Shown here: positions 31,461-32,801 of the stretch, piece by piece | Position numbering within the stretch: the first letter of the stretch is position 1 | Layout of the letters: every line of letters begins with the position of its first letter | NCBI GenBank assembly: GCA_000181795.3 | Contig: CM012954.1 | Span: forward strand, 2,723,967 to 2,787,966 | Length of the DNA: 64,000 nucleotides | Direction of reading: 5' to 3' | From: Trichinella spiralis | Lineage: Eukaryota > Nematoda > Enoplea > Trichinellida > Trichinellidae | Program-made: the position numbers and the translations under genes | Notes under the pieces: model-generated | The model's database searches: none | Told to the model about the DNA's origin: nothing | What the model saw: only the letters and a program-made list of their open reading frames with translations

Positions 31461-32801
31461 TTAAAGTTGTTGGAAGAAACGATCAAAAGTTTCTAGAAGG
31501 CGTTTTACGTCGCCTGTAGTGTCGAATCCGTGACCAGGAAATTCCAAGTCTGGATGCAGACCCACAATGAACGCGTGTTGATCGATCAGTTCAGGGCCGG
31601 AATGGTTGCTGTCCCTGAGGAAATCGAAATGTTCGGCCGCGGGCTGTTTTTTCAAATCGCCCACGACCACTGGTCTCGTTTCGACTCCATGTTGTTCGAG
31701 AAAGTTGACAAGTTGATCACGGCTGAAGCGTTGATTCGGTTTCACCGTGATCGGCACGAACATCCAACAGGGATCCGTATTCGAATACGGTACTGGCAGT
31801 TGTAGTTCAGGATGTTTTCCCATGTAATTTTGTATCAGTTGGAATTTCTTGTTTCTACTTTGACCGAACTGAACCAGTCGATTCAGTTGCACTTGTCCAA
31901 ACGCGCCTTGCAATTCTGTCGGCCGAACGTTGAAACCCCAGTGCGTGAAAGTGAACCTGGCATCTCGATCCATTGGCACGACCGGCTTGTTTAGCATATC
32001 TCTGCACCATCCGTGCGCTCGAAGCATGCGCAGAGCGTCGGCAAAGCGGTCGTCGTTGGTGACCACCATGCCGCCTTCCATCGTGACCAAATGGTGGGAG
32101 AAGAAAAATGAAAACGTACCTGCCGCGCCGAAAGTTCCAACGTGCTGGCCGTTGGAACGGGCGTTCAACGACTCGCAGCAGTCTTCCAGAAGAACCAAAC
32201 CGCGACGACGGCACAAGCTGACAATCGGTTCCATTTGGCACGGATTGCCCATCAAGTGGACCAGAAACAGAGCCTTGGTTTGTGGACCGATGGCTTGTTC
32301 AATTTGCTCGACGTTGCTGTTCAACGTGGTCGGGTCGATGTCGATGGTTTTCACCTTCAGGCCGGCCATGGCGGCGGACCAGATCTGCGTTGGCCAAGTC
32401 AGAGCGGGCACCAGGATCTCGTCGTCCGGCGCCAGCAACGCCAAGCCCGGCGTCACGCAGGCGAAACAAGCCAACAGATCTGCACTGGAGCCGCTGTTCA
32501 CCATCACCGCATGTTTGGCGCCGACGAAATTGGCAAAGCGCTTCTCAAAGTCCGCCACTTTGCGGTTCATGGTCGTCTCGAACCGAAGCAACGAGTCCAA
32601 CGCGTTCAGCACCTCATCAACACCGTACGATGGAACGCTCAGTGGATACCAGTAGCGGCTGTTTGCGTGGTTCGCTTGCTTTTGTGCATTCAGCGATCGG
32701 TTCACCAAATGGATAAGTTGAGAACGTTCCTGATCATCACAACAGCCTGGATACAATTGTTCTTTTTGTTCACTTGGTTCACTTTCCATTTTATTATTCA
32801 T
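31461..32801 (-). CDS. DegT/DnrJ/EryC1/StrS-fold sugar enzyme, probable PMP-dependent 3-dehydratase (ColD/E1-like)
   Basis: Single-exon gene of 446 residues from the ATG at 32801 (another ATG at 32789; the open frame extends upstream only through an AAC/AAT repeat without ATG). Family hallmarks: NSGSSAD near residue 102-108, LLEDCCE near 204-210 with the Asp that pairs with the PLP ring nitrogen, and [14 protein letters not shown] at 231-244. Aminotransferases of this family have the PLP-binding Lys at the first His of SHH (residue 236, bases 32096-32094). A His there is the signature of the 3-deoxysugar dehydratases ColD and E1/RfbH, which remove the C3 hydroxyl of NDP-4-keto-6-deoxyhexoses. 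The Cys-rich [2Fe-2S] motif of E1 is absent, so ColD-like chemistry is likelier. The gene lacks introns and is much GC-richer than its neighbours, suggesting acquisition from a microbe. Substrate unknown. Confidence 0.85.

What the first reader, a model, noticed from the sequence alone, without database searches (positions are those of the whole stretch)
31461..32801. Bacterial-type sugar 3-dehydratase gene in an animal genome, with His replacing the PLP lysine
Seen: one uninterrupted 446-codon frame, GC-rich in AT-rich DNA, between intron-bearing animal genes. The motif [14 protein letters not shown] places His at the position of the PLP-binding Lys; the pyridine-binding Asp (LLEDCC) is kept. 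Known: in ColD and E1/RfbH this Lys-to-His change turns a DegT-fold aminotransferase into a dehydratase that removes the C3 hydroxyl, the committing step to 3,6-dideoxyhexoses. Inference: the gene was acquired horizontally and lets the animal make a 3-deoxysugar. If the host is a nematode, ascarylose (3,6-dideoxy-L-arabino-hexose), the sugar of ascaroside pheromones, is the obvious product to test. Lack of the E1 Fe-S cysteine cluster argues for ColD-like glutamate-dependent chemistry.
Basis: partly seen in the sequence, partly recalled or inferred. Interest (0 to 1): 0.9.

Follow-up and report, generated by a model that had tools for sequence, protein, structure and literature searches.

The report
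Bacterial-type sugar dehydratase in Trichinella
The parasitic worm Trichinella carries a gene of bacterial type that probably makes tyvelose, the unusual sugar that caps its main antigens and whose origin in the worm was unexplained in what we read.

Summary
The frame is real: 31461-32801, minus strand, 446 codons, intronless, 52% GC in 35% GC DNA, on a 17.5-Mb contig of a Trichinella genome. A second copy (51% identical) lies 10 Mb away; Trichuris has orthologues. The protein is a PLP/PMP sugar 3-dehydratase with ColD-type residues (His232 for Lys, Asp203); the insert holding two of E1's four Fe-S cysteines is missing. Nematode rows form one clade, sister to an uncharacterised bacterial clade in which a GDP-fucose-synthase-like gene lies within 1.3 kb in 6 of 8 loci. 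It is neither E1/RfbH nor ColD proper.

The genome shows GDP-mannose 4,6-dehydratase and two GDP-fucose synthases, one changed at GDP-contact positions; CDP-glucose genes were not detected. Trichinella is known for tyvelose (3,6-dideoxy-D-mannose). Best explanation: GDP-mannose, 4,6-dehydration, this enzyme, then C4 reduction to GDP-tyvelose, unlike the bacterial CDP-glucose route. Horizontal origin and ColD-like chemistry hold; ascarylose is less likely than tyvelose. Activity, substrate and reductase are inferred. No paper found in our searches links the gene to tyvelose.

The parts
31461..32801 (-). 446-codon intronless gene for a ColD-like NDP-sugar 3-dehydratase (a second in-frame ATG at 32789 gives the 442-aa P0001; the stop-free frame goes on upstream through an Asn-rich stretch)
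   Evidence: the 446-aa start agrees with the public protein P0002 of Trichinella sp. T8, 99% identical
32094..32096 (-). codon of His232 (442-aa numbering), in place of the PLP-binding Lys; equals ColD His188
   Evidence: aligned with 2gms (His), 3b8x (Asn), 2r0t (Lys); invariant in alignment A1
32181..32183 (-). codon of Asp203 (LLEDCC), predicted to bind the pyridine nitrogen of the cofactor
   Evidence: aligned with LLEDNCES of ColD; invariant in A1
26030..26554 (+). neighbour, not part of the system: exon with HMG box, capicua-like by recalled motif; by my reading that gene ends before 31250, tail to tail with the dehydratase
   Evidence: Pfam HMG_box 2.4e-14; the name capicua and the gene's end are not tested

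Best explanation
The gene encodes a PMP/PLP-dependent NDP-4-keto-6-deoxyhexose 3-dehydratase of the ColD mechanistic type. It was acquired from bacteria by an ancestor of Trichinella and Trichuris and duplicated before these genera split. Inferred function in Trichinella: the worm's own GDP-mannose 4,6-dehydratase makes GDP-4-keto-6-deoxy-D-mannose; this enzyme (perhaps with its paralogue) removes the C3 hydroxyl with PMP, His232 as base and glutamate as amino donor for recycling; a 4-ketoreductase, most plausibly the diverged second GDP-fucose-synthase copy (GFUS-B), reduces C4 to give GDP-3,6-dideoxy-D-mannose, i.e. GDP-tyvelose, the donor for the beta-tyvelose caps of the TSL-1 antigens. 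Shown by sequence: the gene, active-site residues, the missing E1 insert, phylogeny, presence of GMD and two GFUS copies. Inferred: substrate, product, reductase, biological role.
For: Gene real and resident in an animal chromosome; relatives: cluster of 16 Trichinella sequences and two Trichuris species. Best solved relatives by sequence: ColD entries 239-245 bits, E1 182-186, perosamine synthases 161-162. Ser231-His232 and Asp203 as in ColD; the E1 insert with Cys251 and Cys253 missing. Below the RfbH cut-off: 269 of 423 bits, while RfbH genes in L022 and L025 score 738 and 698. Tree: 6 nematode rows 100/99, sister to bacterial clade X, joint branch 100/99; window gene + Trichuris 100/98 against paralogue 2. 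Context: GFUS-like gene within 1.3 kb in 6 of 8 clade-X loci and 29 of 29 ColD-proper loci; GMD in the held DNA in 3 of 8 and 28 of 29 (the reference proteins came from L021, L022, L024, L026 and L028 themselves); L028 has GMD followed by a GFUS-dehydratase fusion. Own genome: GMD, two GFUS genes 61% identical, no CDP-glucose 4,6-dehydratase, no glucose-1-phosphate cytidylyltransferase, no RmlD over cut-off. GFUS-B departs from 11 of 101 columns invariant in 22 other animal rows, among them Leu76 and Lys282, and has Asn at the Trp208 position; GFUS-A departs at 5; those human residues contact GDP (PMC12362431, section 15). Tyvelose on TSL-1 antigens (passages).
Against: No activity or expression data. 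Both GFUS copies keep Cys116/His186, the epimerisation pair, so sequence alone equally allows C5 epimerisation, giving GDP-L-colitose, which is what ColC does in bacteria (recalled). Clade X has no characterised member known to me, and 4 of its 8 loci (L021 at about 15 kb, L022, L023, L025) also lie near CDP-glucose-pathway-like genes; L023 has no RfbH of its own in the DNA held. Two of the four E1 cysteine positions do align with cysteines here. The genome search is exon by exon and may miss intron-rich genes: UDP-xylose synthase, expected in animals (recalled), was not seen either. One control row (Soboliphyme) departs at 9 invariant GFUS columns, near GFUS-B's 11.
Confidence: 0.66

Rival explanations
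1. Same dehydratase, but the end product is GDP-L-colitose (3,6-dideoxy-L-xylo-hexose) or another 3,6-dideoxyhexose made with a GDP-fucose synthase that still epimerises C5; tyvelose is made by another, unknown route.
For: Nearest bacterial relatives lie beside GFUS/ColC-like genes with Cys and His kept in all 14 bacterial rows examined; both worm GFUS copies keep them too.
Against: I saw no report of colitose in Trichinella (one search lists five papers with colitose and nematode, none of them titled on Trichinella; titles and abstract starts only), whereas tyvelose is documented. GFUS-B has letters at five GDP-site or neighbouring positions seen in no other row.
Confidence: 0.13
2. CDP-glucose route as in Salmonella or Yersinia (RfbF-RfbG-E1 like), making CDP-tyvelose or CDP-ascarylose.
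For: Public records name the protein RfbH; 4 of 8 clade-X loci lie near CDP-glucose-type genes; C. elegans perm-1 is described as acting in CDP-ascarylose synthesis (PMC11386954, passages).
Against: Two of four E1 cysteine ligand positions missing; RfbH cut-off not met; L022 and L025 carry a separate RfbH; no CDP-glucose genes detected in the worm.
Confidence: 0.1
3. Ascarylose for ascaroside lipids.
For: Host is a nematode; ascarylose is a 3,6-dideoxy sugar.
Against: Two searches name no nematode outside Trichinella and Trichuris among the best 120 hits each, although ascarosides are described from free-living and parasitic nematodes (PMC10005090, passages); L-ascarylose would also need C5 inversion. 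Weaker hits were not listed, so more distant homologues in other nematodes are not excluded.
Confidence: 0.06
4. An aminotransferase or a non-catalytic relic.
For: DegT/DnrJ/EryC1/StrS fold.
Against: The catalytic Lys is His in all 16 rows of A1; the window gene keeps 99 of 107 columns conserved in clade X; two paralogues with 16 and 13 public member sequences.
Confidence: 0.05

Closest known systems
ColD, GDP-4-keto-6-deoxy-D-mannose 3-dehydratase (PDB 2gms, 3b8x, 2r0t, 3gr9)
   Same: His for Lys, Ser before it, Asp for the pyridine nitrogen, no E1-type insert; relatives beside GDP-fucose-synthase-like genes and GMD
   Different: lies in another clade (ColD proper 100/100; nematodes with clade X 100/99); ColD departs from 41 of 107 clade-X-conserved columns (2 of them only because its row lacks the first residues), the window gene from 8; animal, intronless, duplicated
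Bacterial clade X (about 422 aa, e.g. P0006, P0007, L021-L028), uncharacterised as far as I know
   Same: about 44-52% identity; same active-site set; sister to the nematode clade
   Different: bacterial; in 6 of 8 loci next to a GFUS-like gene, in L028 fused with it
E1/RfbH, CDP-4-keto-6-deoxyglucose 3-dehydratase (3bcx, 3bb8)
   Same: fold, His for Lys, two of four cysteine ligand positions
   Different: has the insert with the other two cysteines, uses E3 reductase and CDP substrates (PMC8987622, passages); window protein far under the RfbH cut-off
Bacterial tyvelose pathway (CDP-glucose, E1, CDP-paratose, CDP-tyvelose 2-epimerase)
   Same: would end in the same sugar
   Different: CDP-glucose start and C2 epimerisation; the proposed worm route starts from GDP-mannose, whose C2 is already right
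Trichinella cyanase (PMC9079694, abstract)
   Same: another gene attributed to horizontal transfer in Trichinella
   Different: unrelated enzyme, clusters with plants

Membership tests
PLP/PMP sugar 3-dehydratases of the DegT fold | catalytic Lys replaced by His | tested here: met
   His232 aligned with ColD His188; invariant in A1
PLP/PMP sugar 3-dehydratases of the DegT fold | C3 dehydration activity | not testable with these tools
   needs an assay
ColD mechanistic type (no reductase, glutamate-dependent) | no complete [2Fe-2S] four-cysteine set | tested here: met
   E1 Cys251 and Cys253 fall in an insert missing here; E1 Cys193 and Cys261 align with Cys205 and Cys262 (ligand positions recalled); ColD lacks the cluster (PMC8987622, passages)
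ColD proper (clade of 2gms) | falls in the clade of ColD | tested here: not met
   ColD proper 15 rows 100/100; nematode + clade X apart, 100/99
ColD proper (clade of 2gms) | GDP-4-keto-6-deoxy-D-mannose as substrate | tested here: inconclusive
   GMD present, CDP-glucose genes not detected in the worm; no assay
E1/RfbH | four Fe-S cysteines | tested here: not met
   two of four positions missing
E1/RfbH | NCBIfam NF011936 cut-off 423 bits | tested here: not met
   269 bits; paralogue 273, Trichuris muris 277
E1/RfbH | CDP-glucose pathway partners | tested here: not met
   TIGR02622 and TIGR02623: no match at E 0.001 in the own genome; exon-wise search
DegT/DnrJ/EryC1/StrS aminotransferases | catalytic Lys | tested here: not met
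   His in its place; Pfam fold match alone, 253 bits
C. elegans PERM-1 | sequence homology | not tested
   sequence not at hand; role taken from PMC11386954

The most novel reading that the evidence does not exclude
An animal evolved a second, GDP-mannose-based route to tyvelose: one bacterial gene, taken up by an ancestor of Trichinella and Trichuris, was joined to the host's own fucose pathway, and in Trichinella a duplicated GDP-fucose synthase became the GDP-tyvelose-forming reductase, creating the parasite's immunodominant sugar.
Probability: 0.47. Interest if true: 0.9.

Novelty: new variant of a known kind. Interest (0 to 1): 0.82.

Why it matters
Tyvelose is the immunodominant sugar of Trichinella larval antigens and is used in diagnosis (PMC8784694, PMC3755266, passages), and in our searches we found no account of how an animal makes it. 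The finding names testable enzymes, suggests why the sugar is rare in animals, bounds the acquisition (before Trichinella and Trichuris split), and offers a second biochemical route to a sugar known from Salmonella. An enzyme absent from mammals (recalled) could also be a drug target.

Tried and rejected
CDP-glucose route: searched by family in the own genome, nothing found. dTDP-rhamnose-type reductase: PF04321 gave only a weak piece of GFUS-B under the cut-off. Other SDR genes found were read as UDP-galactose-epimerase-like, threonine-dehydrogenase-like and DHRS7-like from recalled motifs and set aside. Loss of epimerase residues in GFUS-B: looked for and not found. Contamination: rejected because of the 17.5-Mb contig, animal neighbours, the second copy and orthologues. 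Viral relatives: the best listed is 43% identical, below the bacterial best. Rfam: no match at gathering scores in the window. Fifteen of the 80 loci were left out by hand; one search used 79 of the 160 non-nematode protein hits then held; one search used 60 rows chosen by me, without E1, without the long-branched L028, and without the T. spiralis paralogue-2 model P0122, whose active-site region does not align. The GFUS tree used 23 of 120 listed hits. In one search genes were assigned by blastp identity thresholds to reference proteins taken from L021, L022, L024, L026 and L028, so these loci match in part by construction; NCBIfam supports the reference assignments for L024 and L026 (GDP-fucose synthase best family but under its cut-off), L028 (GMD, over cut-off) and L022 (CDP-glucose 4,6-dehydratase over cut-off; RfbH); the L021 GFUS-like gene and the GT11 and cytidylyltransferase references rest on recalled motifs and similarity.

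Paper searches without result to the point: no paper; one unrelated paper. Searches bearing on a prior report: (listings); term look-ups inside PMC9079694, PMC4740406 and PMC11242134.

Full report
Observation. The frame lies on the minus strand at 31461-32801, ATG to TAA, 446 codons, without interruption. The stop-free stretch is 467 codons; 20 first-order Markov simulations of the window gave longest stretches of 128-189. Its GC is 0.520 against 0.352 for the window. Animal-type exons lie in the same window: an HMG box, a synoviolin-like RING and a forkhead exon.

Host. The window is part of contig C2 (17.5 Mb) of a 53.1-Mb, 14-contig genome. The best public match is a Trichinella sp. T8 protein, 99% identical over the whole length, in a cluster of 16 sequences, so the host is a Trichinella species; which one was not settled. 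A second intronless copy, 51% identical (215 of 422), lies at C2:12765428-12766726 and is 98% identical to a T. britovi protein (cluster of 13). Trichuris muris and T. suis proteins are 63-64% identical.

What it is. Pfam: DegT_DnrJ_EryC1, 253 bits. Solved relatives: ColD entries 239-245 bits, E1 182-186, perosamine synthases 161-162. The ColD variants 3b8x and 2r0t show that the first His of SHH is the catalytic one; it is His232 here, with Ser231 before it as in ColD; Asp203 is kept. His232 and Asp203 are invariant in 16 rows. The paralogue has Ala for Ser231, as E1 does. Of the four E1 cluster cysteines (positions recalled), Cys251 and Cys253 lie in an insert that is missing here; Cys193 aligns with Cys205, which clade X shares, and Cys261 with Cys262, which the Trichuris rows and the paralogue lack. 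So an E1-type cluster is unlikely, but the cysteines are not all gone. By the review PMC8987622 (passages), E1 and SpnQ carry a [2Fe-2S] cluster, ColD does not and regenerates PMP with glutamate. The protein scores 269 bits against an RfbH cut-off of 423, so the public name RfbH is not borne out.

Relationships. A tree of 153 rows (quick) and one of 60 rows (careful) agree. Six nematode rows form one clade (100/99) that is sister to a bacterial clade X of 31 rows (99/96), the two joined at 100/99; ColD proper with 2gms is another clade (100/100). The window gene and Trichuris group (100/98) against Trichinella paralogue 2, so the duplication predates the split of the two genera; no Trichuris paralogue 2 was seen among the listed hits. 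A bacterial origin by transfer is the simplest reading, since the family is widespread in bacteria and the only named animal hits are these; the donor is not resolved.

Context of the bacterial relatives. Of 80 bacterial or archaeal loci, 65 were examined. A GDP-fucose-synthase-like gene lies within 1.3 kb in 6 of 8 clade-X loci, 29 of 29 ColD-proper loci and 7 of 28 others; GMD lies in the DNA held in 3 of 8, 28 of 29 and 7 of 28 (reference proteins drawn from five of the clade-X loci). In L028 the GFUS-like and dehydratase parts are one frame of 731 aa, right after GMD (534.7 bits, cut-off 415); its dehydratase is long-branched and weakly placed in clade X. On the other side, 4 of 8 clade-X loci lie near CDP-glucose-type genes: L021 (CDP-glucose 4,6-dehydratase about 15 kb away), L022, L023 and L025. 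L022 and L025 have an RfbH of their own (738 and 698 bits); in L023 none was found in the DNA held. Seven of 29 ColD-proper loci also hold a CDP-glucose 4,6-dehydratase. So clade X is best read as a GDP-sugar enzyme, with that reserve; no member is characterised as far as I know. A GFUS-like partner of ColD is known as ColC in the colitose pathway (recalled; PMC8987622 cites a paper on both).

Partner genes in the worm. GMD gave seven matches at C2:11731049-11732328. CDP-glucose 4,6-dehydratase and glucose-1-phosphate cytidylyltransferase gave no match; RmlD nothing over cut-off. Epimerase and GDP_Man_Dehyd searches gave 12 and 9 matches that I read as GMD, two GFUS genes, a GALE-like, a threonine-dehydrogenase-like and a DHRS-like gene (the last three names from recalled motifs). 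The search works exon by exon and showed no UDP-xylose synthase, so absences are not proof; an intronless acquired gene like the dehydratase would, however, have been easy to find.

The second GFUS. GFUS-A (C2:7716896-7718009, minus) and GFUS-B (C2:14702960 onward, plus) are 61% identical. GFUS-B has a 98% match in Trichinella sp. T6 (cluster of 20). In a 25-row animal tree A and B group with moderate support (91/90) beside Trichuris, so the duplication looks specific to the Trichinella line. The list is capped at 120 and lacks GFUS-A itself, so a second Trichuris copy is not excluded. Of 101 columns invariant in 22 other animal rows, GFUS-B departs at 11, GFUS-A at 5; leave-one-out values for the 22 are 0-9, the 9 being Soboliphyme and the next 4. 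GFUS-B departures include Leu76 to Phe and Lys282 to Arg, and it has Asn where human GFUS has Trp208 (a variable column); in human GFUS Leu76 binds the alpha-phosphate, Lys282 the beta-phosphate, and Trp208 stacks on guanine (PMC12362431, section 15). Cys116, His186, Tyr143 and Lys147 are kept in both copies. So GFUS-B is a candidate, not a proven, partner.

Function. Trichinella muscle larvae secrete TSL-1 glycoproteins capped with beta-D-tyvelose, 3,6-dideoxy-D-arabino-hexose (PMC8784694, PMC4465845, PMC3755266, passages); PMC4465845 calls it genus-specific. Tyvelose is 3,6-dideoxy-D-mannose (established naming, recalled). GMD and a ColD-type enzyme would give GDP-4-keto-3,6-dideoxy-D-mannose, and reduction at C4 without C5 epimerisation gives GDP-tyvelose. 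In bacteria tyvelose is made through E1 from CDP-glucose (PMC8987622, passages) and a CDP-tyvelose 2-epimerase (titles and abstract starts of PMC7851689 and PMC13098431). The worm route would be shorter and different. All steps from substrate on are inference.

Against. The enzyme also occurs in Trichuris, for which I saw no report of tyvelose; both worm GFUS copies could epimerise; half of the clade-X loci lie near CDP-glucose-type genes; no expression data were reachable. C. elegans perm-1 is described as acting in CDP-ascarylose synthesis (PMC11386954, passages); its relation to this gene was not tested.

Prior report. Full-text searches for tyvelose with Trichinella, biosynthesis, horizontal gene transfer, GDP-mannose and Trichuris, and for RfbH with Trichinella or colitose with nematode gave no paper that ties a gene to tyvelose synthesis in the worm, judged from listings and, for a few papers, passages; one search listed 40 of 47 and 15 of 21 papers, and subscription papers are mostly not held. 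The paper on horizontal transfer in Trichinella deals with cyanase (abstract) and has none of six terms looked for. A public record already names the T. spiralis paralogue GDP-4-keto-6-deoxy-D-mannose 3-dehydratase, apparently by automatic annotation.

Verdict. A real, horizontally acquired ColD-like dehydratase in Trichinella, most likely the committing enzyme of tyvelose synthesis.

Noticed in passing
L002:1450-2805 (G000:C2:12765428-12766726): Second intronless dehydratase paralogue, 51% identical, with Ala for Ser before the catalytic His and further changes at columns conserved in clade X (14 of 107); its separate role is unexplained.
   Followed up: partly
P0122 (public T. spiralis protein, 410 aa): The T. 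spiralis paralogue-2 model does not align around the active site (Asp and His blocks missing or shifted); gene model, assembly or a real defect, not settled.
   Followed up: no
L028:8969-11164: Pelagibacteraceae frame that fuses a GDP-fucose-synthase-like part with a 3-dehydratase part, directly after GMD.
   Followed up: partly
G000:C2:14702960-14703628 and onward (L013): Second GDP-fucose synthase of Trichinella with changes at GDP-contact positions (Leu76, Trp208, Lys282) but epimerase residues kept.
   Followed up: yes
L024:11349-12332, L026:11276-12220, L027:11203-12132: GT11-like genes (fucosyltransferase-type, name recalled) just downstream of clade-X dehydratases, candidates for transferring the dideoxy sugar.
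   Followed up: partly
G000 whole genome: UDP-xylose synthase and dTDP-glucose dehydratase were not seen in the SDR family searches; either the exon-wise search misses them or the worm lacks them.
   Followed up: no
window 32960-33110: TA and GT microsatellite just upstream of the gene's start.
   Followed up: no
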